DNA of 53,943 bases from a virus. Positions 4,033 through 40,384 of this stretch are shown in pieces. Under the pieces are notes generated by a model, which saw only the letters and a program-made list of their open reading frames with translations, searched no databases and was not told the DNA's origin. Each line of letters starts with the position of its first letter. Position 1 is the stretch's first letter. A program made the translations under genes and the position numbers. Where the stretch lies: positions 1-53,943 of IMG/VR virus record IMGVR_UViG_3300024999_000139. One strand, given 5' to 3'.

Positions 4033-4839
4033 TTATCGTGCATAGGCTACCTGCTGACCTGCACTAGAATAATTATTTTGATATTGATTTTGCCTGATTG
4101 ATTTAACTTTATTTAGGTTTTTTAATGCTTCAATTGCTTCTTCTTCATTTACATGTATTTCTAAAACACCCTCCGATTTCATAAGAGCGATTTCAACTTT
4201 TAACATTAGGTTTGGTGGGCATTCCGATACCTTTTGAAACACTCCATTCTTTCCTATTAATCTCCTTTTTGATATTGTGTTTGGTAATTCACAACATATA
4301 ATTGAATCTTGGGGAATTCCGCACTCTTTACTGCTTGCAAAAACGTGAGTAGGCATCTTTGCTTTGGATCTACTGGTCATGGCGATTACGATGGAATTGC
4401 TAGAACACGCATTACCCTTGTTATTTTGAATCACAAGCACCATTCTTGGGCCTCCCACCTCACTATCTATCCCTTTGTCTCCAAAATCTGCGAAACAAAA
4501 ATCACCCCTTCTGACTCGAATATTTTTTATTTGCTCCAAATCATTATTTTCATACAATGAATACCCACATGCTATTTTCAGATCCTGCAATGAAACTCTA
4601 CCTTCTGAATTATTTGCGAAAACATTAAGAGTTTGAACGTTTGGGTAAGCATTTATTTTTTCACGAATAATTAATTCTATGTACCCTCCTTCAATTTTGC
4701 AGTCTGCTCCAAAATTATTAATAGTCCTATGAGTGCCTTTAGCATTCATAATTAAATTGGCTAATTTCTTAAAATCCTTTTTTGTATTTTCCTCAGAGTT
4801 AGTAGTGTTGGTTGATTTAGCAAATAATTTGTTGAACAT
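4033..4839 (-). CDS. MazF/PemK-like protein with N-terminal extension
   Basis: The C-terminal two thirds carry the PemK/MazF fold signature: VRRGDFCFADFG, GGPRMVLVIQNN, then VIAMTSRSKAKMPTHV, which in toxins forms the ribonuclease beta barrel. About 110 N-terminal residues have no obvious match. I prefer the start at 4839 (MFNKLF) because AAAGGATG lies about 10 bases upstream, while the ATG at 4860 has no ribosome site. No MazE-type antitoxin gene is adjacent. The C-terminus ends VAYAR, close to the VAYAN end of the second MazF-like protein. It is first in an operon with agrB. Toxin activity is not established. Confidence 0.8.
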   Translation of the reverse strand: MFNKLFAKSTNTTNSEENTKKDFKKLANLIMNAKGTHRTINNFGADCKIEGGYIELIIREKINAYPNVQTLNVFANNSEGRVSLQDLKIACGYSLYENNDLEQIKNIRVRRGDFCFADFGDKGIDSEVGGPRMVLVIQNNKGNACSSNSIVIAMTSRSKAKMPTHVFASSKECGIPQDSIICCELPNTISKRRLIGKNGVFQKVSECPPNLMLKVEIALMKSEGVLEIHVNEEEAIEALKNLNKVKSIRQNQYQNNYSSAGQQVAYAR

Positions 4840-4901
4840 AATAATGCACATCCTTTTCATATTTAATAAGATATAAATAATTTTCTTTATCTGATAGTAT
4901 T

Positions 4902-10040: not shown

Positions 10041-10211
10041 TCACTCCTCTTCATAAAATACAGGATGGGTAGCAACCATATCAACAAACGTAATACCCAT
10101 CCACCAGTACATACTTTCAATATTTCTTGGCAATCCAATTATTGATAAAAGTATTATCGCTCCTGACTGGATTACAAAGAATTTTCTCCAATAATTTTTG
10201 AATTTATGCAT
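10041..10211 (-). CDS. Small hypothetical protein, 56 aa
   Basis: Starts at 10211 behind AAAGGAGG, overlapping the last eight bases of the DUF1385-like gene. One hydrophobic helix (FVIQSGAIILLSIIGLP) suggests membrane association. It ends in acidic residues. No family recognised. Overlap on both sides argues for a real operon member. Confidence 0.6.
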   Translation of the reverse strand: MHKFKNYWRKFFVIQSGAIILLSIIGLPRNIESMYWWMGITFVDMVATHPVFYEEE

Positions 10212-11079
10212 TAAAACCTCCTTTTCTATTATTTAATAATAAATTAAATGAAACTATAGCTACCTCAAGTTGGTCATGTGTTGGTTCTGCTGTAGTAAAA
10301 GATTGCATCCATAGTCCAAATTTTTTAATTGGACTTAAAATTTTAATATCTTTTCTATTCATTAAACGAAACGTTTCATATGTCAAACTAAATAAGAAAA
10401 TTATCGCAAATGTCTTTACCCATACAGGAGCTACTATAAAAAAGAATATAATATTAAAAATTAACAATTTTTTTAATATTAATAGACCAATAAAAGATGT
10501 TCCACATCTTGGATGTAAAGTAGAATGTTTTATTACATTTTCAATTTTTACATCTTCACCATTTTCATAACAATTAATAACCTTATGCTCTGCCCCATGA
10601 AAATACTTTAATTCTTTTGCCATTGGGAAGTGCGAGAAAACAGTCATTATATAACCAATAAATATTATCATAAAAACAATAGATGTAACTGCGTTTACAT
10701 TTAGAAATGGAATTATCCTTACTAAAAATAATGATATATACTTAGGCAAAAAATAGAAAAGTGTATATAGCAAAAATGAACTAAAAACTAATCCTAATAT
10801 ATTGTAAAATGCTTTAATTAATTTCGATTTAGGTTTTTCTGATAATGTTAGTAATTCCATAGCTTTAAATAGTTTATTAAAAACACTAATATCTAAAAAC
10901 ATTGCAAATCCTCTAATAATGGGTATTTTAAACAATATTCTTGGGATATAAGATTTTTCTCTTTCTACGATTGTTTTTATTGTGCCATCTTCTCCTCTAA
11001 CTGCAATGGCATAATTATCCATGTCAGAAAACATTACACCATTTGGGACTGCACTACCACCATAAGTATTCTTACTCAT
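10204..11079 (-). CDS. DUF1385 (YqhQ-like) membrane protein
   Basis: 291 residues with the DUF1385 features: YGGSAVPNGVMF at the N-terminus, AIAVRGEDG, IPIIRGF, then two membrane pairs flanking the hallmark YFHGAEHKVINCYE and LHPRCGTSFIG (about residues 180-216). The family is widespread in Firmicute chromosomes (B. subtilis YqhQ) and has no settled biochemical role. Its presence among phage-like genes suggests capture from a host. The ribosome site is AAGGAG. It heads a short membrane-protein operon. Confidence 0.85.
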   Translation of the reverse strand: MSKNTYGGSAVPNGVMFSDMDNYAIAVRGEDGTIKTIVEREKSYIPRILFKIPIIRGFAMFLDISVFNKLFKAMELLTLSEKPKSKLIKAFYNILGLVFSSFLLYTLFYFLPKYISLFLVRIIPFLNVNAVTSIVFMIIFIGYIMTVFSHFPMAKELKYFHGAEHKVINCYENGEDVKIENVIKHSTLHPRCGTSFIGLLILKKLLIFNIIFFFIVAPVWVKTFAIIFLFSLTYETFRLMNRKDIKILSPIKKFGLWMQSFTTAEPTHDQLEVAIVSFNLLLNNRKGGFNA

Positions 11080-13280: not shown

Positions 13281-14984
13281 TTAACCCAACCTATAAACTT
13301 CTTTCTCATTAATGACAACAAATTTACTACCTTCTCTAATTAATCTAGATCCATCATTAACCACATCACAAGCAAAATCCTTATAGACATTCTTTTCAAA
13401 CCCAAATCCTCTAATAACCTTATCACTAGGACTAAAAATTACTCCATTACTAAAACATAAATTACCTAAATCAGTAGAATATCTAATAGAATCATTACTA
13501 TAAACTACCTTATTTTTATCAAAAATTAATGTCTTAAAATTAACCTTATCATCCTCAGTAATAAATAACCAATTCTTTTTCGCAACATCATAATGCATCC
13601 CATAATTAATAATTTTGTCATTGTCATTCATTTGATAATTATATCCACTAACATTAACAATTTTAAATCCATCATAATTATTGCATACAAAGTAATTATC
13701 CTTATCATACACCTCAAATATAGCGTTAAAAGACGTTTTAGTAATTGTTCTCAAAGAATTGCCAATATTCCCTACAGTCAATTCAACAAGATTAGAACTT
13801 GAATTGATATAATAAACTACTGAATCTTTAACAATAACTTGACTTTTATTAATCTTCTCAAATATAAATGTGCCTTTTTTATTACTAATACAAATATCTG
13901 TATTTGACACAGTAAAAACATTTTCTCCATCATTTGAGAAATAATATCTATTACCATTAATCAATTTGACTTTCTTTTTTGATCTACTATGAACCACAAA
14001 ATCACTATCATCAATAAATACATCAACACCTAAGACCATTTTTACACCATTTGAGGCAATCAAAACAATGTAAGGTATAGATCCATTAGTAACAACCTTA
14101 GTAGGAGCTTGGATCATTACTGCACTACCATCACATATAGGGCAGGTTTTATATTTTCCATAGTAATAATCGCCATGAGTACTGCAAAGTTTTAAGTTAG
14201 TAATAAAATCTGTTAGATTTTGATCTATTAAAAATCTTTTACCTTGCTCAAAAATACTTCTCATATCTGTAAGTAACTTTGGAGACATAAATTCCCACTT
14301 ATTAATATTCTTTGGCACAATTACCTTAGAATTTTCGATTACTGAAATCCCTTTATTTATCCTTTGAATAATATCCATATCTGGATTAGTTGTACCGCCA
14401 TAGGGGTGAAGTCTTGTCAGCATCTTAAATAATAACACCGCAAAAGAAAATGAATCAGTGTCTTTTGTAAAATTACTTGAAACTAATTTAGGATCTTTAA
14501 ATGTTTCCATACATACAGTACAATTGATATTATCAATAGACCAACTATCTACATCAATAAAATATGGTTCAAAGTCTTTAGTGAATAATATGTTGCTATC
14601 ATTTAAGTCACTGATAAGAATGTTTTGATTGTGTAAAATGGATAGTGTCTCTTTAATTCTTAATGCCAACTTACTAATGTCTTGAATAGTAATATTGTTT
14701 ACTTTTACATATTTCTTGTTTCCTAATTTCTTAACATCTTCACCTTCTGCTTTAGGCATAATATAACCAATGAATTTCTTCTGTGAATCATAGGCAATAT
14801 CAATAGGTTTAATGATATTTGAAGGTAGAGATTTAGTCATTAATAATTTAATCTTTTGTAATTTTTCTTGCTTATTGACGGAATCTTTATAAACTTTGAG
14901 AACATTATCTCCCAAATCATAAATAATTCCTTCTCCGCCTTCGGCTAATGGAGTTTGCTTTAGAATTTTAGCACTTACGTTCAT
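13281..14984 (-). CDS. TerY-P-type protein kinase with C-terminal beta repeats
   Basis: Residues 1 to about 260 form a Hanks-type kinase: glycine loop LAEGGEGIIYDLG (13-25), lysine in VLKVYKD (about 30), catalytic-loop aspartate in ISDLNDSN (the HRDxxxxN equivalent, about 140) and metal aspartate in FIDVDSW (DFG equivalent, about 156). A zinc-ribbon segment (CSTHGDYYYGKYKTCPICDG) follows near residue 270. The last 270 residues are beta-rich, with repeats like a propeller. It is last in a triad after the VWA and PP2C genes and is separated from PP2C by only 11 bases. It probably phosphorylates the VWA protein or partner proteins. Confidence 0.88.
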   Translation of the reverse strand: MNVSAKILKQTPLAEGGEGIIYDLGDNVLKVYKDSVNKQEKLQKIKLLMTKSLPSNIIKPIDIAYDSQKKFIGYIMPKAEGEDVKKLGNKKYVKVNNITIQDISKLALRIKETLSILHNQNILISDLNDSNILFTKDFEPYFIDVDSWSIDNINCTVCMETFKDPKLVSSNFTKDTDSFSFAVLLFKMLTRLHPYGGTTNPDMDIIQRINKGISVIENSKVIVPKNINKWEFMSPKLLTDMRSIFEQGKRFLIDQNLTDFITNLKLCSTHGDYYYGKYKTCPICDGSAVMIQAPTKVVTNGSIPYIVLIASNGVKMVLGVDVFIDDSDFVVHSRSKKKVKLINGNRYYFSNDGENVFTVSNTDICISNKKGTFIFEKINKSQVIVKDSVVYYINSSSNLVELTVGNIGNSLRTITKTSFNAIFEVYDKDNYFVCNNYDGFKIVNVSGYNYQMNDNDKIINYGMHYDVAKKNWLFITEDDKVNFKTLIFDKNKVVYSNDSIRYSTDLGNLCFSNGVIFSPSDKVIRGFGFEKNVYKDFACDVVNDGSRLIREGSKFVVINEKEVYRLG

Positions 14985-14995
14985 TTACTTTCACC

Positions 14996-15622
14996 TCAAA
15001 TTACTATTGAAATGTCATCCTTAAAATATTTATGCTCACGGTTAATTAATCTTCTGATTGCAAATTCTTTTCTTTCTAATAATAGTCTTTCAAATTCTTC
15101 CTTGAATGGACTATTAAGAATGTATTCTAACCCGTCAGAAGCTACTCCTACGGCCTTATATTCGATTTTAGATAGTAAGTGACGTTTAAACTCTACACCG
15201 TCTTTATATTTGCTTAAATGATCTGGTGAAACATAATTATAAGCAAAATATTCAGGTGCATTGCCTTCGCCTATTTTTTCATATTCAATAGAATCATCAT
15301 GTTTTTGTTTTATTATGTAACCATCACCGCAAACATCAACTATATAATCCTCTTTAGTTTCAGATACAATTAACACAGTGAATAACAAATGATTGCGAAC
15401 ATCTTCATATTTAGGGAAAATGTCAGATAACATTCCGAATATATCATCAATTGAATATCTATCTTGTGATAGCAAATGTCCAAATAATTTAGCACCAACT
15501 TCAGAATGCTTTCCTTCAGAACAACCATCCATTACGCATTTATGATCCGAATTTTCAAAACCAAAATCTTGACAATTTAATCCTTTTTCAATATGTTCGT
15601 AACCTATTTTACAAATAAACAT
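14996..15622 (-). CDS. PP2C-family protein phosphatase of the TerY-P triad
   Basis: 208 residues with the PP2C metal-binding aspartates: CVMDGCSEGKHSEVGAKLF (near 30), DVCGDGYII (near 115), VASDGLEYIL (near 160) and the terminal DDISIVI. It is a short, domain-only PP2C that would reverse phosphorylation by the adjacent kinase. The order VWA, PP2C, kinase with tight spacing is the TerY-P arrangement described for bacterial stress/defence islands. Confidence 0.88.
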   Translation of the reverse strand: MFICKIGYEHIEKGLNCQDFGFENSDHKCVMDGCSEGKHSEVGAKLFGHLLSQDRYSIDDIFGMLSDIFPKYEDVRNHLLFTVLIVSETKEDYIVDVCGDGYIIKQKHDDSIEYEKIGEGNAPEYFAYNYVSPDHLSKYKDGVEFKRHLLSKIEYKAVGVASDGLEYILNSPFKEEFERLLLERKEFAIRRLINREHKYFKDDISIVI

Positions 15623-15640
15623 TGTTGCCTCCCATTTAGG

Positions 15641-15676
15641 GAATAGTTCTGCTACTTTATCATAACAGAACTATTC
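15641..15676. repeat. 11-bp hairpin between VWA and PP2C genes
   Basis: Perfect arms GAATAGTTCTG / CAGAACTATTC with a 14-base loop. A T-run follows on the plus strand only. On the transcribed minus strand it lies just upstream of the PP2C ribosome site, so it may tune relative expression or stabilise the downstream RNA. Confidence 0.6.
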
Positions 15677-15688
15677 TTTTTATTTTAA

Positions 15689-16384
15689 TTACATTGTGAA
15701 AGAATCATCTGTCATTGCAAAGAATCCGTCTTGATCTGCAACTACTGATTTTGAACTTTCAATAACCGATTTAGACAGACAATCAAATGCTTTTCGTAAT
15801 TCACTAGCAGAAGAACCAACCTGAAGAATATTTTTGAATTGCATATTCTTTGCTTCTCTCATAGCACTTGAACCAAAGCTGATAAATGCAGTCGTGACCT
15901 CTTTGCTATTTAAGTCTGTGATAACATTCTTTGCCTGACTAACACTATTTCTTGAACTGGTATCTTCTCCATCACTGAATACTGCAAATACAGCTTTAAC
16001 TCTCATACCTTGATTCTTTAGATATGTCATATAATTAACTAATTTCTCTGCTCCATCAACAACTACATCATATAACGGTGTCATCCCATAGACATTGTAT
16101 GCTGTATCAAATTCTTCAATCTTTTTATATCCTCCAATATCAATATTACTGTCATGAAAATTAGCTCTAGCCACTAGCATTTCATCTGATTCTTTACTAT
16201 CGGTTAATGCACTTTTGAACTCTGAAAGATTTTTCTTCATATCTTGAATATATCCACCCATTGAGCCAGATTCATCAATCGCAATAAAGATTAAATTAAT
16301 GTTTTCACTATTAAGATCATCCATTGAAGTATTTTCTTGTTCAATATCATCAAGTCCTAAAATATCCATTGTTTCTACTGTCAT
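15689..16384 (-). CDS. VWA-domain protein of the TerY-P triad
   Basis: A nearly bare von Willebrand A domain with a full MIDAS site: FIAIDESGSMGG (DxSxS), the threonine in YGMTPLYD, and the aspartate in AVFSDGED. It resembles TerY. I prefer the ATG at 16384 (MTVETMD), which has GAGGAAT at correct spacing, over the one 15 bases upstream. It is the first gene of the VWA-PP2C-kinase triad. No TerD or TerC proteins are in the window, so the partners of the triad remain unknown. Confidence 0.88.
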   Translation of the reverse strand: MTVETMDILGLDDIEQENTSMDDLNSENINLIFIAIDESGSMGGYIQDMKKNLSEFKSALTDSKESDEMLVARANFHDSNIDIGGYKKIEEFDTAYNVYGMTPLYDVVVDGAEKLVNYMTYLKNQGMRVKAVFAVFSDGEDTSSRNSVSQAKNVITDLNSKEVTTAFISFGSSAMREAKNMQFKNILQVGSSASELRKAFDCLSKSVIESSKSVVADQDGFFAMTDDSFTM

Positions 16385-16440
16385 TTTAATATTCCTCATT
16401 TCTTATATTTTAGTTTTTAGGTTTATTCATTATTTTTAAA

Positions 16441-17349
16441 TTACAGAACCAAGTCTGTTGATTTTACAATGTTTACTTTATAGATTTTCTTTAATTCATC
16501 ATATCTAATCTTTTTCTGTTCAGGTGTATCCATTACAGAAGACATGCAATCTTCTAAGATATAAACTTTCTTTAAGAGTTTTGGATTACTCTTGTGGAAC
16601 TCTAGTAATTGTTTAATACTTTCATATACACAGAAATCAGAAGCTTGACCAGCGATTACGATCTTATCAAATTTAGCTATTTTATTTAAAACATCTAAGT
16701 TTATAAATCCTTTTTCATCAAATTCAGGGGCGAACAGTCCATACATCTCACTGAAACAATCTGTACCTTTAACAATTCTATTAACCATTGTTTTCTTAGC
16801 AACCGAATGGAAATAAACCATGTTAGCAAACTGATTTTCTAATGCTGCCCCATGAGTTCCTTGAAGGCAATGATAAGGCCAAATTAATAAGTTTTTCTTA
16901 CCTTTTGATTCTAATCCTTCAACATAACGTCTGGAGCGAATTGGATCAACTACTGGAAACCATTTTCCATCATCTAAATCCTTTAGAGTAATTGGTGTGA
17001 ATGGAGTAGGATTAATACCATTTGTATCTACCCACCAACAAGGATGAAAGATTTGGAATGGGTTATGAGTATCAATTGATACTGCAATTTGAGCAATTTT
17101 ATCCATGTTATCATAGATGAATTGTGTGAATCTTGCTGTATCTGCACAACTGCCTTGTACTGCTAAAGCTCCCTGCTCTAAAAAATCATTTTGGATATCA
17201 ATTCCAATTACCAATATTTGCTCTACGTTCTTAGATGCAGGTTGAAGTTTTTCTTGATTTGCTTTTGCAAGAATTTCATTTAAACTACGAGTGTTTTGTG
17301 GTGCTCCAATTGCCTGTACGTCTACAATTTCTTCATAAGATGTTTTCAT
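16441..17349 (-). CDS. Nicotinamidase-like cysteine hydrolase
   Basis: The isochorismatase/nicotinamidase fold is clear: IGIDIQNDFLEQGAL supplies the catalytic aspartate, SIDTHNPFQIFHPCWW the metal ligands typical of nicotinamidases, and AGQASDFCVYESI the nucleophilic cysteine. At about 302 residues it is longer than the usual 180-220, with inserts after the metal site and around CFSEMYGLFAPEF. Nicotinamidase converts nicotinamide to nicotinate for NAD resynthesis. The start at 17349 has a GAAGGAAA site. It is adjacent to a NadM-like adenylyltransferase, which supports a role in NAD salvage. Confidence 0.85.
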   Translation of the reverse strand: MKTSYEEIVDVQAIGAPQNTRSLNEILAKANQEKLQPASKNVEQILVIGIDIQNDFLEQGALAVQGSCADTARFTQFIYDNMDKIAQIAVSIDTHNPFQIFHPCWWVDTNGINPTPFTPITLKDLDDGKWFPVVDPIRSRRYVEGLESKGKKNLLIWPYHCLQGTHGAALENQFANMVYFHSVAKKTMVNRIVKGTDCFSEMYGLFAPEFDEKGFINLDVLNKIAKFDKIVIAGQASDFCVYESIKQLLEFHKSNPKLLKKVYILEDCMSSVMDTPEQKKIRYDELKKIYKVNIVKSTDLVL

Positions 17350-17401
17350 TTTTAAGTTTCCTTCTTTCATAATTTTATTTATTGGTTTAATGGAGTTTAC
17401 A

Positions 17402-17446
17402 TTACTTTGAAATAGTTATGTATATACCTCTTTCCCCATGTTTCAA
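17402..17446 (-). CDS. Possible 14-codon leader peptide
   Basis: In the leader of the nicotinamidase-like gene a TTG codon follows GAAAGGATG at good spacing and reads (M)KHGERGIYITISK before a stop. It may be a regulatory leader or chance. Confidence 0.25.
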   Translation of the reverse strand: MKHGERGIYITISK

Positions 17447-17498: not shown

Positions 17499-17528
17499 AT
17501 TATACATCGGCATTGAGTAGTTTGTCAA
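17499..17528 (-). promoter_or_regulatory. Promoter of the nicotinamidase-like gene
   Basis: TTGACA (17528-17523), 18 bases, TATAAT (17504-17499) on the minus strand. The untranslated leader to the start at 17349 is about 140 bases, long enough for regulation, though I recognise no known riboswitch. Confidence 0.75.
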
Positions 17529-17544
17529 GTATTTATTTTATGAT

Positions 17545-18096
17545 TTAATTCTCCTTATAATATGTACAATTCATCAACTCTAAACGTAAATCATAAAAAT
17601 ATTTATGCAATTCTAAACTATGATAATCACACCATTTCAACCAATTATTACTTACCATTAACTTTCTTAGTTCAGTTGCGGATATGGGTATTTCAGAACG
17701 AGGTACAACAATTTCCATAATATCTTTTATATCTTCTGGAGCAAACCACCCTGACCTAGATTCATCATTTCCATAAATCATAACATCTGGATTCTTTCCG
17801 ATAATATCATGAACTTTATCAAGTAAATATTTGCCCCATTCTTCCGAAATATCATCTTCGCTTGTTAAGTCTGGTAATCCACAAACAATAACATTATCAT
17901 CATGATAAATTTCCTTAATCATTTTAATTCTTGTTTCTACAGAAAATGGATTTCGCAATGTACCATTTTCTTGAGCAGAACCTACAAGAATTAATAATCT
18001 ATCACACATGGTCAATGCTAAATCTGCAAGTGATTTATGACCTATATGAAATACATTAAAACGACCTACTAGCAAACCTACATCATATTTTTTCAT
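17545..18096 (-). CDS. nadM: NadM-type nicotinamide-nucleotide adenylyltransferase
   Basis: 183 residues of the nucleotidyltransferase fold: GLLVGRFNVFHIGHKSL carries the HxGH motif, and SEIPISATELRKLM matches the C-terminal ISxTxxR motif. The enzyme joins NMN (or nicotinate mononucleotide) and ATP to give NAD or its deamido form. The bifunctional phage/bacterial forms often add a Nudix domain; none is present here. It has its own promoter at 18147-18175 and lies next to the nicotinamidase-like gene, so the pair probably rebuilds NAD during infection. Confidence 0.9.
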   Translation of the reverse strand: MKKYDVGLLVGRFNVFHIGHKSLADLALTMCDRLLILVGSAQENGTLRNPFSVETRIKMIKEIYHDDNVIVCGLPDLTSEDDISEEWGKYLLDKVHDIIGKNPDVMIYGNDESRSGWFAPEDIKDIMEIVVPRSEIPISATELRKLMVSNNWLKWCDYHSLELHKYFYDLRLELMNCTYYKEN

Positions 18097-18201: not shown

Positions 18202-20394
18202 TTACTCTTTCTCGCAATAAAACATTTCTCTAAGTGTAATAATATCTTTCCTTAATACCTCTCTAGTTTGCTGTCTTAACCATCCATAAAACTCATTTGC
18301 TAAAGGTGTAGTCAAGGAACTAGTATACTTAGTATATCCATTCTTAGAAACATCTTCTTTAACACTTCTCATATGTTTCCAGAAACCATAATACTGCAAT
18401 TTAACCTTTGTCATAAATCCAACCGTATCTTCTAAAACAAATCCCTCAATATACTGATTCTTATACTTGTAATCATCTGCGGTTACTTCTTCATACCATT
18501 GATAAAATTCTCTCCAATTATCTAAAACTTTTGCCTTTACTTTCAATGGAAGATTATATTTGTTAGAGAATAATTGCAACTCTTCATAAGATTTTACCTT
18601 ATGTTCATTAATATTATTTTCTACAATTTCCAATAACACTAAATGAGGAAAACTATATTTAATCATATGAGGATCATTCGTAGGATCAATAACTTCAAAT
18701 ACTAAAGTAGATTTCTGTTCCTTGAGATATTCTTTAATTTCAAATTGTTGTTTTTCGTCAAGAATATTATTAAATATATCCTTAAAATATCCTGCAAATT
18801 CACTATTAGGATTTGATTTTGAGCTAATTAATAATGTATCTCTAGAAGAATCATAACCTACTAACCCTAAGAATCCATTATATTTTACCCAAGCTGTCAC
18901 AGGAAATTGGAATACATTTTTAAGATTATCTAGTTTAGTGTTCTCTCGCTCATTGATATTGAAAAATTTTAGAAAACTTTTGGCAATTATCTCTCCGTTT
19001 TCAACATTAAAGAATAATCCTCTGGCCTTCATAGTTTGATCGTCCCAAATCTTCTTATAAAAAGCATCCTTTGTAAAATTAAATGAAGATATATGACCAA
19101 ACTTAGATTCTCTAATGTAGCGATTTTCACGCAATTTTTGTATTAATTCCATGTTAGAAACTACAATTTCTTCAGACTGAACAGGTTTAATTTCTTCCTC
19201 AATTTCCTTAAAAACATTATTTTTTACTTCAATAGTGTTAAATCCTTCATTATCGAGTGTAACAACCCTGAGATTTCCTCCAAACTCTATTTTTCCTTCC
19301 AAACAAAAACATCTTTTATTAATTTGGATTGGTGAATCTGCAACGTTACGATGCCCGTGTATCTGAAAGTGATTATCTGATGTGGAGTTTAAAAATTGAG
19401 CATTGACCACTTCCATATCCTTATATTCTCCAACGCCTTTAATCAACTGTTCTGTGGCTAAGAATTCAAATCTTTCTGGTATTGTGCTGATACCACCATG
19501 CGTAACAACTACAATTTTCTCATTGTATGTATAATAAGCTAATTGTCTTAATTTCCTATAGAATATTCTCAATTTCTTTTTATCTACTTGATATTTATTA
19601 AGTTCTCTTTTTGTTACTTGTTCAAATTCTTTGCTTTTACTAGGAATGTCATTAGCAAAGTCAAACAGCCATTTTTCATGATTTCCTTGTAAAAATATTA
19701 CATTGGGTTTATCCATAATAGTAAATAAGAAATTAAGTAATTCTGCATTTTCAATTCCTCTGTCAACATAATCTCCAACAAAGATATATAATTCATCTTC
19801 TTTTAATTCACTCTGTAAATATTCTTGCAAAACAGTATTACATCCATGTAAATCTCCAATATGATGAATCTTTTTATACTTAGAAAAATCTAAAGGAGAA
19901 TATGTAATTGTGTCCCAAAATTCCTCTGGTTTAATTGCTTTAACTCCACTAGGAATTTTTTGAGATTCAAATCTTGCATACATATTGTCAATCACAAAAT
20001 CAGGTACAACTTTATAATCAGGTTTTCTATTCCTATTTCTCTCTTTGCAAACTTCAATAGGAATATCCGTCATATCAACACAAATTATTCTATATCTATA
20101 TGTTTCTGCCATACTTTTGTATCTATTTAACTCAACAGTTTTAGAATTAGTTGCATCAACTACAACAAATTCTCCACGAATCATTCTTTGCTCTAAGATA
20201 TCAAATAGTAGTTCCCATACTTTTTTATCATTCTTCTGACTAACACCATATTTTCCATCTGAAGTCATAATAGGAGATTGTAAAAGTAGTCTAATATTAT
20301 CCGCACTTAAAGCATATTGTTCAAGATTATTTTCTTTGATGAAGGTTGATTTTCCACTCGCAGGTGATCCTCGAAACAATGTAAGTATTCTCAA
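18202..20394 (-). CDS. RNA end-healing and sealing protein: kinase, phosphatase, ligase
   Basis: Three fused domains in 730 residues. Residues 1-160 are a polynucleotide kinase (P-loop GSPASGKS at 9-16, VVDATNS). Residues about 175-385 are a calcineurin-type phosphatase (GDLHGC, GDYVDRG, GNHEKW, THGGI, HGHRN). The C-terminal part is a nucleotidyltransferase/RNA ligase with KYNGFLG (the adenylated lysine, near 490), EVIDPTND, EGFVLED and KVK. This matches bacterial Pnkp logic and T4 Pnkp plus Rnl1. It would repair RNA broken by anticodon nucleases. The start is TTG at 20394 behind GAAGGAGG. Confidence 0.92.
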   Translation of the reverse strand: MRILTLFRGSPASGKSTFIKENNLEQYALSADNIRLLLQSPIMTSDGKYGVSQKNDKKVWELLFDILEQRMIRGEFVVVDATNSKTVELNRYKSMAETYRYRIICVDMTDIPIEVCKERNRNRKPDYKVVPDFVIDNMYARFESQKIPSGVKAIKPEEFWDTITYSPLDFSKYKKIHHIGDLHGCNTVLQEYLQSELKEDELYIFVGDYVDRGIENAELLNFLFTIMDKPNVIFLQGNHEKWLFDFANDIPSKSKEFEQVTKRELNKYQVDKKKLRIFYRKLRQLAYYTYNEKIVVVTHGGISTIPERFEFLATEQLIKGVGEYKDMEVVNAQFLNSTSDNHFQIHGHRNVADSPIQINKRCFCLEGKIEFGGNLRVVTLDNEGFNTIEVKNNVFKEIEEEIKPVQSEEIVVSNMELIQKLRENRYIRESKFGHISSFNFTKDAFYKKIWDDQTMKARGLFFNVENGEIIAKSFLKFFNINERENTKLDNLKNVFQFPVTAWVKYNGFLGLVGYDSSRDTLLISSKSNPNSEFAGYFKDIFNNILDEKQQFEIKEYLKEQKSTLVFEVIDPTNDPHMIKYSFPHLVLLEIVENNINEHKVKSYEELQLFSNKYNLPLKVKAKVLDNWREFYQWYEEVTADDYKYKNQYIEGFVLEDTVGFMTKVKLQYYGFWKHMRSVKEDVSKNGYTKYTSSLTTPLANEFYGWLRQQTREVLRKDIITLREMFYCEKE

Positions 20395-30284: not shown

Positions 30285-30485
30285 TTAACTAAACAAATCT
30301 TCAACTTTGCAATATAATACATCATCCTTATACAATTTATCTTCAACCACTTTTACAGATGTTGAAAATCCTCCTCTCAAAGATATTAAGCACTCATCTC
30401 CATCAATATATTTAGATACAACAACTGCTCTTATTCCTTGTGCAGATATAAACCTTTCAACTATTTTCTCAAAACCAATAATCAT
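30285..30485 (-). CDS. Small hypothetical protein, 66 aa
   Basis: MIIGFEKIVERFISAQG followed by beta strands. Overlaps the uvsE stop by four bases, so it is translationally coupled to it. No family recognised. Confidence 0.6.
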   Translation of the reverse strand: MIIGFEKIVERFISAQGIRAVVVSKYIDGDECLISLRGGFSTSVKVVEDKLYKDDVLYCKVEDLFS

Positions 30486-31363
30486 AATCTAATCTCCCTC
30501 CTATAATCCTCAATAAACCTATCTACTGCTAAATCCTTATCTTTCGCCTCAATCATAACATCAAATTCCAAATCCTTATACTTCTCAAAGAAATCTTTGC
30601 AATAATCAAAATCAATCATGTCAGAATGGCTTCTAAACGCATCAATACTCTTAGGTGAACTAAGATGTATCTTAGGTACTTTACTATCGCCCCAAGTGGC
30701 AAATATAGCTTCTAAATCTAATTCTATGCCATCATTATTACAAACAAAATGATGATAATCAAAACAAAGTCTGACTTCAGTTTTCTTGTGTATTTCCATT
30801 ATATCACCTACAGTATAACTTTTGTCATCATTTTCTAGCAAAATATGATTTCTTAATTTTACTGGCAAACTATTAAACACATTGATAAATCTTTGTATTG
30901 CTTCGGCCTTATTGCCATAAACACCACCAACATGAATGATGATATTGAAATGATCCAGACCCATAGTTTTAAGAATATTATAATGATAAAATAAATCTTT
31001 AATAGAATTATTTACAACTTCATCCCTATTGCTTGACAACACGCACATTTGAGATGGATGCATTGATAATATCATATTATTATTTTTTGCTATATTACCA
31101 ATTCTCTGCAAATCAGATTCAATCCAAGACATGTAATCAATATCTTTCATAATTTCATGCGTAACAAATGGAACAAGATCAGAACTGATTCTGAATAATT
31201 TAATTCCTTCCGAAATACAATGTTGAATTGTACGCTCAGTTTCGTTGATATTGTGAGTAATTGCTTGTTTTAATCTGTATTCACTAAATGATGCCAATCG
31301 GAATGTTTGGTATTTTGTATTGCATTTTTTACTCATACAAGCGAATCCTACATGTCTGATCAT
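30482..31363 (-). CDS. uvsE: UV DNA damage endonuclease (UvsE/UVDE)
   Basis: 293 residues of the TIM-barrel UvsE family: HVGFACMSKKCNTKYQTFRL, RISSDLVPF, ILSMHPSQMCVLSSN, IIIHVGGVYGNK, LENDDKSYTVGDI, RLCFDYHHFVC, KIHLSSPK and FDVMIEAKDKDLA. The histidines and glutamates correspond to the metal site. UvsE nicks DNA 5' of UV photoproducts. Useful to a spore-associated or light-exposed phage. The ribosome site AAAGGAGG lies directly after a 16-bp hairpin. Confidence 0.93.
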   Translation of the reverse strand: MIRHVGFACMSKKCNTKYQTFRLASFSEYRLKQAITHNINETERTIQHCISEGIKLFRISSDLVPFVTHEIMKDIDYMSWIESDLQRIGNIAKNNNMILSMHPSQMCVLSSNRDEVVNNSIKDLFYHYNILKTMGLDHFNIIIHVGGVYGNKAEAIQRFINVFNSLPVKLRNHILLENDDKSYTVGDIMEIHKKTEVRLCFDYHHFVCNNDGIELDLEAIFATWGDSKVPKIHLSSPKSIDAFRSHSDMIDFDYCKDFFEKYKDLEFDVMIEAKDKDLAVDRFIEDYRREIRL

Positions 31364-39649: not shown

Positions 39650-40384
39650 TTATTTAATCTCCCCCTCAATCTCAGCAACATTAAATCCTAATTCCTTTGC
39701 TTCATCAAAATCAAAACCTTCATCAGTGTGCATAATAAAAATTTTCCCCCTTAGTCCTTCAGGAATAACCTCTGTAAGCTTTCTCAATGACAAATGAACA
39801 TTGCCATCATAATCTGCTTTACAAGTATCTTGATACAAATAATCAATTTGTCCTGTTTTTAATGCATTAATAGTATTATCTTTAATATCACAAGAATCTC
39901 CACTATAATAAATAACCTCTTCATTTTCTTTTTCTTTAGTATTGTCAACCAACAATATTCCAAATGATGCAAGTTCCTTAACGTGATTTTCTTCAATATA
40001 AATTAATCTAATATTTAAACTTTCTATAGCAAAATTAGGATTTGCATTATTGTGTTCAAATTTACAATGTTCTTCAGTGACTCCCATATATTGTAACAAT
40101 CTAATAAAATCATTATCAGCAGAATGGAATATTGGTTTAATTTTCTTGATAAAATGACAATAAAATATTAAACTCCCTAGACTACCAATATGATCTGGAT
40201 GAGTATGAGTTACTGCAATATGGACTTCTGATATACCATCTAATAAATTTAGAGATAAGATTCTAGCGAAAGTTAACTCTCCACAATCGATAAGTAATAA
40301 TGTATTATTTTCTTTTATGTAGGCACTTGTGTTACCTAATTTAATATTGAATGCTGAACCTGTTCCTATAAATTTTAATTTCAT
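39650..40384 (-). CDS. MBL-fold hydrolase, RNase Z-like
   Basis: 244 residues of the metallo-beta-lactamase fold: MKLKFIGTGSAFNIKLGNTS, LIDCG, VTHTHPDHIGSLG (HxHxDH), YSGDSCD and MHTDEGFDF. The GTGSAF start and length resemble RNase Z/arylsulfatase-like members. A role in tRNA 3'-end processing would fit the nearby RNA-repair genes, but the substrate is not shown by sequence. Confidence 0.85.
   Translation of the reverse strand: MKLKFIGTGSAFNIKLGNTSAYIKENNTLLLIDCGELTFARILSLNLLDGISEVHIAVTHTHPDHIGSLGSLIFYCHFIKKIKPIFHSADNDFIRLLQYMGVTEEHCKFEHNNANPNFAIESLNIRLIYIEENHVKELASFGILLVDNTKEKENEEVIYYSGDSCDIKDNTINALKTGQIDYLYQDTCKADYDGNVHLSLRKLTEVIPEGLRGKIFIMHTDEGFDFDEAKELGFNVAEIEGEIK

What the first reader, a model, noticed from the sequence alone, without database searches (positions are those of the whole stretch)
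13281..16384. TerY-P triad (VWA, PP2C, kinase) on a mobile element, with a propeller-like kinase tail
Seen: complete MIDAS site, PP2C aspartates and kinase residues in three tightly spaced genes. Known: such triads occur in Ter-linked stress and defence systems. Inference: a phosphorylation-switch module, possibly defence or counter-defence, with no TerD partners in view.
Basis: partly seen in the sequence, partly recalled or inferred. Interest (0 to 1): 0.7.

Follow-up and report, generated by a model that had tools for sequence, protein, structure and literature searches.

The report
Phage NAD-salvage enzyme with kinase switch
A large phage carries a four-gene unit in which an enzyme that recycles a vitamin-B3 fragment toward NAD sits beside a kinase, a phosphatase and an adaptor protein; the same unit recurs in other giant phages and a few bacteria, suggesting that NAD recycling is controlled there by protein phosphorylation.

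Summary
The three genes are real, intact and tightly spaced: VWA 15689-16399, PP2C 14996-15622, kinase 13281-14984, all on the minus strand. The kinase tail folds confidently as a beta-propeller (pLDDT 92, pTM 0.88). A nicotinamidase-type hydrolase (PncA-like, 16441-17349) lies directly upstream, behind a perfect sigma-70 consensus promoter that relatives conserve.

PncA-VWA-PP2C-kinase recurs in huge and other phages, Lachnospiraceae, Clostridium, Bacteroidota, a Chromatiaceae MAG and a Nomurabacteria MAG. Twelve of 13 IMG/VR loci with a PncA at least 30% identical carry the VWA. Across 25 loci all PncA, PP2C and kinase catalytic residues are retained wherever sequence exists; the only MIDAS change is Ser to Thr in three. 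Several loci add NadE, PncB, NrtR, NMNAT, NADAR or ADP-ribosylglycohydrolase. No TerD gene was found in the window or in the phage records searched.

Best reading: a TerY-P-type phosphorylation switch wired to Preiss-Handler NAD salvage, used by phages to sustain or restore NAD+ during infection. Architecture, linkage and conservation are shown; regulation of PncA and anti-defence use are inferred. I found no description of this linkage, but the founding TerY-P paper could not be read. Classed as a new variant of a known kind.

The parts
17499..17528 (-). sigma-70 consensus promoter TTGACA-18-TATAAT (12 of 12), own promoter of the cassette
   Evidence: Best of 42 promoter-like matches in 6.5 kb (43 expected by chance overall); same site in L015, L023 (whose upstream gene is different) and as TATACT in L016
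17416..17439 (-). short leader ORF MGKEVYT* in the 5' UTR (possible, function unknown)
   Evidence: Conserved as MGKEVYT, MIKEVYT or MGKEVHT in L015, L016, L023; relatives are close, so conservation is weak evidence
16441..17349 (-). nicotinamidase-type cysteine hydrolase (PncA-like, 302 aa from the start used by relatives; ORF opens at 17370)
   Evidence: Profile matches solved nicotinamidases (E=1e-17 to 1e-6); D58, D100, H102, H109, K201, C247 (numbered from 17370) 25/25; triad-free relatives lie in NrtR/PncB/NadE operons
15689..16399 (-). VWA protein, TerY/YegL-like, complete MIDAS
14996..15622 (-). PP2C-type Ser/Thr phosphatase
   Evidence: PF13672; all metal-binding Asp 25/25
14196..14984 (-). 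Ser/Thr protein kinase domain (residues 1-263)
   Evidence: PF00069 E=1.2e-11; homologous to YegI over kinase and knuckle (98.8%); AlphaFold model
14133..14186 (-). zinc-knuckle-like C-x2-[HD]...C-P-x-C (residues 267-284)
   Evidence: Present in 13 of 21 family kinases tested, absent in the Bacteroidota/distant-phage branch; the region aligns with YegI, where only the second CPxC is clear
13284..14111 (-). C-terminal beta-propeller domain (residues 292-567), about seven four-stranded blades
   Evidence: AlphaFold pLDDT 92.3, pTM 0.88, 28 strands; Foldseek PDB hits mostly propellers
17545..18096 (-). NadM-like NMN adenylyltransferase, upstream neighbour (accessory)
   Evidence: PF01467, phrog_3462; same position in L015 and L016, absent in L023 and L017
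12847..13248 (-). nucleoside 2-deoxyribosyltransferase-like protein, downstream neighbour (tentative accessory)
   Evidence: PF15891 E=6e-10; also downstream of the kinase in L023, and a similarly annotated gene lies in the Variovorax NAD cluster

Best explanation
It is a four-gene transcription unit, pncA-vwa-pp2C-kinase. Nicotinamidase turns nicotinamide (the product of NAD+-cleaving enzymes) into nicotinic acid, feeding the Preiss-Handler route: PncB, then an NMN/NaMN adenylyltransferase, then NadE. The phage supplies PncA and, in this lineage, the adenylyltransferase; the host, or the phage itself in larger relatives, supplies the rest. The kinase, with its propeller sensor or docking domain, and the PP2C set a phosphorylation state; the MIDAS VWA protein most likely joins that switch to PncA, so that nicotinamidase output is turned up or down. 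In phages this would sustain or restore NAD+ during infection, including against NAD+-depleting abortive-infection systems. Shown: gene identities, linkage, catalytic conservation, propeller fold, NAD-salvage context. Inferred: nicotinamide as substrate, phosphorylation of PncA or VWA, the direction of control, and the anti-defence use.
For: Linkage: 12 of 13 IMG/VR loci with a PncA relative at >=30% identity carry the VWA, 11 also PP2C and kinase within the fetched DNA, and the twelfth has both 6-10 kb further on. Searching 50,697 phage records separately with the kinase and with PncA returned the same four records. Fifteen of 80 bacterial PncA loci have the VWA next door. On the PncA tree the linkage label needs 9 changes against 23.2 shuffled, and a starred 18-row clade is wholly linked. 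Pairwise distances correlate, PncA-VWA r=0.97, kinase-PP2C r=0.96 (closely related rows inflate these). NAD context: NadE and PncB in G006, G008, G010 and LR756500, all of PncA, VWA, NadE, PncB, PP2C, kinase and NMNAT on one strand within 15 kb of G006; NrtR-PncB-NADAR-PncA-VWA-PP2C-kinase-NadE in a Bacteroidales MAG. Triad-free PncA relatives sit in NrtR/PncB/NadE operons. Two-pair modularity (PncA-VWA apart from PP2C-kinase) in G022, Variovorax and G006 makes the VWA the natural link to PncA.
Against: No experiment, and no direct sign that the kinase acts on PncA or VWA. Most PncA relatives in bacteria work without a triad. One huge-phage PncA-NadE locus (L025) has no triad, and no kinase was found elsewhere in that 161-kb contig. 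The window lineage shows no PncB, NadV-type or NadE gene in the 230-kb relative, so the pathway would lean on the host. TerY-P-like modules elsewhere are reported to act as stand-alone defence (PMC11090510 citing Gao 2020). The kinase could have other substrates.
Confidence: 0.5

Rival explanations
1. The triad is a TerY-P-type defence (superinfection exclusion) module carried by the phage, and PncA is its metabolic arm or effector, for example by changing nicotinamide or NAD pools when a rival phage is sensed.
For: TerY-P-like modules with a kinase-OB fold are reported as stand-alone antiphage systems and accompany CoCoNuTs (PMC11090510). The cassette also sits in bacterial genomes, patchily: no PncA-linked non-seed hit in 1,375 genome draws.
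Against: PADLOC finds only generic kinase matches and nothing for VWA, PP2C or PncA. No nuclease, membrane or toxin partner is constant; the constant partner is a biosynthetic enzyme with intact catalytic residues. Bacterial copies lie with NrtR/PncB/NadE.
Confidence: 0.2
2. PncA and the triad are only co-transcribed: the kinase acts on host proteins (host takeover, as phage T7 kinase does, from general knowledge), and PncA is a separate auxiliary metabolic gene.
For: Phage genes cluster by expression time; the window has many other early-type genes. PncA-VWA and PP2C-kinase can separate.
Against: The linkage recurs in several bacterial phyla and distant phages with unrelated flanks, the VWA stays with PncA even when the kinase leaves, and the kinase still carries PP2C and VWA partners unlike a lone takeover kinase.
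Confidence: 0.15
3. The hydrolase has a related but different substrate (another amide in NAD or ADP-ribose metabolism) and the cassette processes an immune signal rather than salvaging nicotinamide.
For: The ~300-aa subfamily has an N-terminal extension and an insertion relative to canonical PncA. NADAR, ADP-ribosylglycohydrolase, Macro and deoxyribosyltransferase-like genes recur nearby.
Against: All six canonical nicotinamidase catalytic and metal residues are 25/25, and the same subfamily sits in plain NrtR-PncA-PncB-NadE operons in Bacillus.
Confidence: 0.1

Closest known systems
TerY-P triad (TerY-like VWA, PP2C, Ser/Thr kinase with C-terminal zinc ribbon)
   Same: Same three enzyme classes in one unit, intact MIDAS, and a zinc-knuckle-like motif behind the kinase in the window's branch.
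   Different: Nicotinamidase partner instead of TerD or restriction genes, a beta-propeller tail, no TerD in window or phage relatives.
E. coli yegL-pphC-yegI
   Same: VWA-PP2C-kinase in the same order; kinase homologous over kinase and knuckle (98.8%); YegI autophosphorylates and PphC dephosphorylates it (PMC13232886).
   Different: YegI is a membrane-bound 648-aa kinase, with no PncA in the fetched 9.6-kb yeg region; the PphC profile match is weak (12% probability, E=0.002).
Preiss-Handler NAD salvage operons under NrtR (NrtR-PncA-PncB-NadE)
   Same: The cassette PncA belongs to the same subfamily; the Bacteroidales copy is such an operon with the triad inserted.
   Different: The usual operons have no kinase, phosphatase or VWA.
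Phage NAD+ synthesis and reconstitution pathways (NadV-NadM/NadR; NARP1 Adps-Namat)
   Same: Phage-encoded NAD+ renewal; the window also has a NadM-like NMNAT.
   Different: Those run from nicotinamide by phosphoribosyltransferase or from ADP-ribose (PMC9503650, PMC13232231); this one deamidates nicotinamide and carries a phosphorylation module.

Membership tests
TerY-P triad | TerY-like VWA with complete MIDAS | tested here: met
   MIDAS retained in 25 of 25, Ser to Thr in three; profile match to YegL 94.5%
TerY-P triad | adjacent PP2C with catalytic aspartates | tested here: met
TerY-P triad | adjacent Ser/Thr kinase with catalytic residues | tested here: met
TerY-P triad | kinase fused to a C-terminal zinc ribbon | tested here: inconclusive
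   C-x2-[HD]...CPxC in 13 of 21 family members, none in the distant branch; the region is low confidence in the model and is followed by a propeller
TerY-P triad | linkage to TerD/Ter genes or restriction systems | tested here: not met
   No TerD in the window or in 9 phage records. Ter linkage is common rather than defining, and TerY-P also occurs without it (PMC11090510), so the claim stays 'TerY-P-type'
Gao 2020 stand-alone TerY-P-like defence | kinase-OB-fold fusion | tested here: not met
   Tail is a beta-propeller
Gao 2020 stand-alone TerY-P-like defence | protects against phages | not testable with these tools
   needs plaque assays
Nicotinamidase (PncA) | catalytic D-K-C and metal D-H-H | tested here: met
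   25/25; matches solved nicotinamidases; Pfam Isochorismatase itself only 19 bits, below its cut-off of 27
Nicotinamidase (PncA) | hydrolyses nicotinamide | not testable with these tools
   needs enzyme assay
Phage NAD+ reconstitution (NARP1, NadV route) | Nampt/NadV or Adps-Namat enzymes | tested here: not met
   No NAPRTase-family hit in the 230-kb relative; larger relatives carry PncB and NadE instead. Adps was not searched for

The most novel reading that the evidence does not exclude
A dedicated Ser/Thr phosphorylation switch controls nicotinamidase and hence NAD+ salvage, through a VWA adaptor and a propeller kinase; giant phages and some bacteria use it as a regulated NAD+ replenishment system against NAD+-depleting immunity.
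Probability: 0.4. Interest if true: 0.82.

Novelty: new variant of a known kind. Interest (0 to 1): 0.66.

Why it matters
TerY-P-type triads are spread widely but their targets are unknown. A constant small-molecule enzyme partner gives the first defined candidate output, nicotinamide and NAD+ levels, that a simple assay can read. It also adds a deamidating, apparently regulated route to the known phage ways of renewing NAD+, relevant to Thoeris, DSR and other NADase defences.

Tried and rejected
TerD linkage: searched, absent in the window and phage relatives; four TerD genes lie about 43 kb from the cassette in one Lachnospiraceae genome, taken as not linked. Known defence system: PADLOC gives only generic kinase hits. 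Riboswitch in the 143-base leader: no Rfam match. Near-identical known phage: no megablast match. VWA and PP2C profiles against PDB: no match. Wider bacterial spread: outside the seed genomes no PncA-linked VWA in 1,375 genome draws (some overlap between draws); two Clostridia have a close VWA and PP2C with a 1,570-aa kinase and no PncA. The full-length kinase model placed the domains poorly (pTM 0.52), so the tail was folded alone. An apparent second PP2C at 39650-40384 (profile hit) is a metallo-beta-lactamase. Reading the 2012 Ter paper and the 2024 Microbiome paper on NAD in jumbo phages: not held.

Full report
What is in the window. The window is a 53,943-base IMG/VR virus record; of the 57 ORFs of at least 100 codons only two short ones are on the plus strand. 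The three genes of the finding are present as described. VWA (15689-16399, 236 aa) carries D42-x-S44-x-S46, T107 and D143; PP2C (14996-15622, 208 aa) carries D19, D32-G33, D100, D163 and D203; the kinase (13281-14984, 567 aa) carries the GGEG loop, K30, D126, N131 and D144. Pfam calls the kinase and PP2C but not the VWA; the VWA rests on its motif and on a profile match to YegL. The genes are under purifying selection: dN/dS 0.04-0.29.

The kinase tail. The full-length model has a good kinase lobe and a poor hinge. Residues 289-567, folded alone with 19 relatives, give pLDDT 92.3, pTM 0.88 and 28 strands; PDB matches are dominated by beta-propellers such as BamB, WDR5 and Vps18, at TM 0.36-0.56. 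About seven blades is my reading of the strand count. Between kinase and propeller lies C-x2-[HD]...C-P-x-C in the window's branch, in a region that aligns with E. coli YegI.

The missing fourth gene. Directly upstream (16441-17349) is a cysteine hydrolase that Pfam scores below its isochorismatase cut-off, but whose family profile matches solved nicotinamidases (E down to 1e-17) and keeps D58, K201, C247 and the metal ligands D100, H102, H109. The unit begins with a TTGACA-18-TATAAT promoter at 17528-17499. It is a 12-of-12 match, and it is kept in L015, in L023 where the gene upstream is a different one, and nearly in L016. The number of promoter-like matches in the region is not above chance overall; the conservation is the evidence.

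Linkage. In IMG/VR, 16 loci encode a relative of this PncA. Thirteen are at least 30% identical, and 12 of them have the VWA downstream, 11 with PP2C and kinase within the fetched DNA; in the twelfth (G006) PP2C and kinase lie 6-10 kb further on, with NadE and PncB in between. Two of the 12 (L010, L018) look like one virus. The three remote relatives have none. tblastn of 50,697 phage records with the kinase and separately with PncA returned the same four records. Flanking genes are otherwise unrelated between lineages. In bacteria, 15 of the best 80 PncA loci have the VWA next door: Lachnospiraceae and other Clostridia, a Clostridium MAG beside an SMC-like gene, Bacteroidota, a Nomurabacteria MAG and a Thiodictyon MAG. 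Many are MAG contigs, where misplacement is possible; the Lachnospiraceae A4 isolate scaffold (416 kb) is not a MAG.

History. On a PncA tree of 79 rows the linkage label needs 9 changes against 23.2 for shuffled labels; a starred clade of 18 phage and Lachnospiraceae rows is entirely linked, and other linked rows are scattered over deep branches. Gain and loss cannot be told apart. Pairwise distances agree best for PncA-VWA (r=0.97) and kinase-PP2C (r=0.96). In G022, Variovorax and G006 the cassette splits exactly into PncA-VWA and PP2C-kinase. I infer that the VWA is PncA's partner and the link to the switch.

Catalysis is kept. Across 25 loci from phages and several bacterial phyla, every PncA, PP2C and kinase catalytic residue is retained wherever the sequence exists; the only MIDAS change is S44 to T in three.

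NAD context. NadE and PncB occur in the phages G006, G008, G009, G010 and LR756500, of which G009 lacks the triad. G006 has PncA, VWA, NadE, PncB, PP2C, kinase and NMNAT on one strand within 15 kb. A Bacteroidales MAG has NrtR-PncB-NADAR-PncA-VWA-PP2C-kinase-NadE; a Thiodictyon MAG has NadE-PncB-NrtR beside it; a Variovorax megaplasmid has all parts plus NADAR, Macro and NAD kinase genes. PncA relatives without the triad lie in NrtR, PncB and NadE operons of Bacillus and Sphingobacterium, which supports a true nicotinamidase. The window's own lineage has only PncA and a NadM-like NMNAT; its 230-kb relative has no NadE or PncB.

Comparison with the known. The module matches TerY-P as defined in PMC11090510 (VWA, PP2C, kinase plus zinc ribbon) in three features; the ribbon is uncertain and the Ter link is absent. 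YegL-PphC-YegI of E. coli has the same order; YegI autophosphorylates and PphC dephosphorylates it (PMC13232886), so a kinase-phosphatase pair is a reasonable reading here. The survey of NAD/ADP-ribose systems in viruses lists NadV, NadM and NadR and has no mention of PncA or PP2C (PMC9503650). Literature searches for the linkage found nothing, but the 2012 TerY-P paper and a 2024 paper on NAD in jumbo phages are not held, so novelty is provisional.

How it most likely works. NAD+-cleaving immune effectors release nicotinamide. PncA converts it to nicotinate, and PncB, the adenylyltransferase and NadE, from host or phage, rebuild NAD+. The propeller kinase and PP2C set a phosphorylation state that the VWA transmits to PncA. 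The first sentences follow from established enzymology; the last is inference. Whether this serves anti-defence, replication demand or exclusion of rivals is open; an Apyc1-like anti-Pycsar protein elsewhere in the window only shows that the phage carries a likely counter-defence gene.

Rarity. Outside seed genomes no PncA-linked VWA was found in 294 Lachnospirales, 394 Bacteroidota, 397 Pseudomonadota and 290 Clostridia genome draws (flanks were checked for the best 30 matches of each search). The unit is rare in bacteria and recurs in large phages.

Noticed in passing
39650-40384 (-): Metallo-beta-lactamase-fold hydrolase close to Apyc1 anti-Pycsar proteins (PF23023, 49.2 bits against a cut-off of 50).
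   Followed up: no
18202-20394 (-): Fused kinase-phosphatase-RNA ligase repair protein (phrog_8238, 737 bits), next to the NMNAT; an RNA ligase beside NAD genes also occurs in L025.
   Followed up: partly
4033-4860 (-): C-terminal half resembles a MazF-like growth inhibitor (phrog_1936).
   Followed up: no
30482-31363 (-): UV endonuclease UvdE homologue (PF03851, 230 bits) in a phage.
   Followed up: no
10204-11079 (-): DUF1385 membrane protein (PF07136 E=2e-46) near the cassette; a relative lies downstream of the kinase in L015.
   Followed up: partly
17416-17439 (-): Seven-codon leader ORF in the cassette's 5' UTR, conserved in three relatives.
   Followed up: partly
L211 and L212: Clostridia loci with close VWA and PP2C relatives, a kinase of about 1,570 aa and two unknown genes in between, no PncA: a different triad type.
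   Followed up: partly
L182 5992-12687: Vibrio vulnificus large replicon: PncA-like gene followed by an RNA ligase, a potassium channel and a TerD protein, no triad.
   Followed up: no
L180: Variovorax 800-kb plasmid with a dense NAD/ADP-ribose gene set (PncA, VWA, PP2C, kinase, PncB, NadE, NAD kinase, NADAR, Macro, Nudix regulators).
   Followed up: partly
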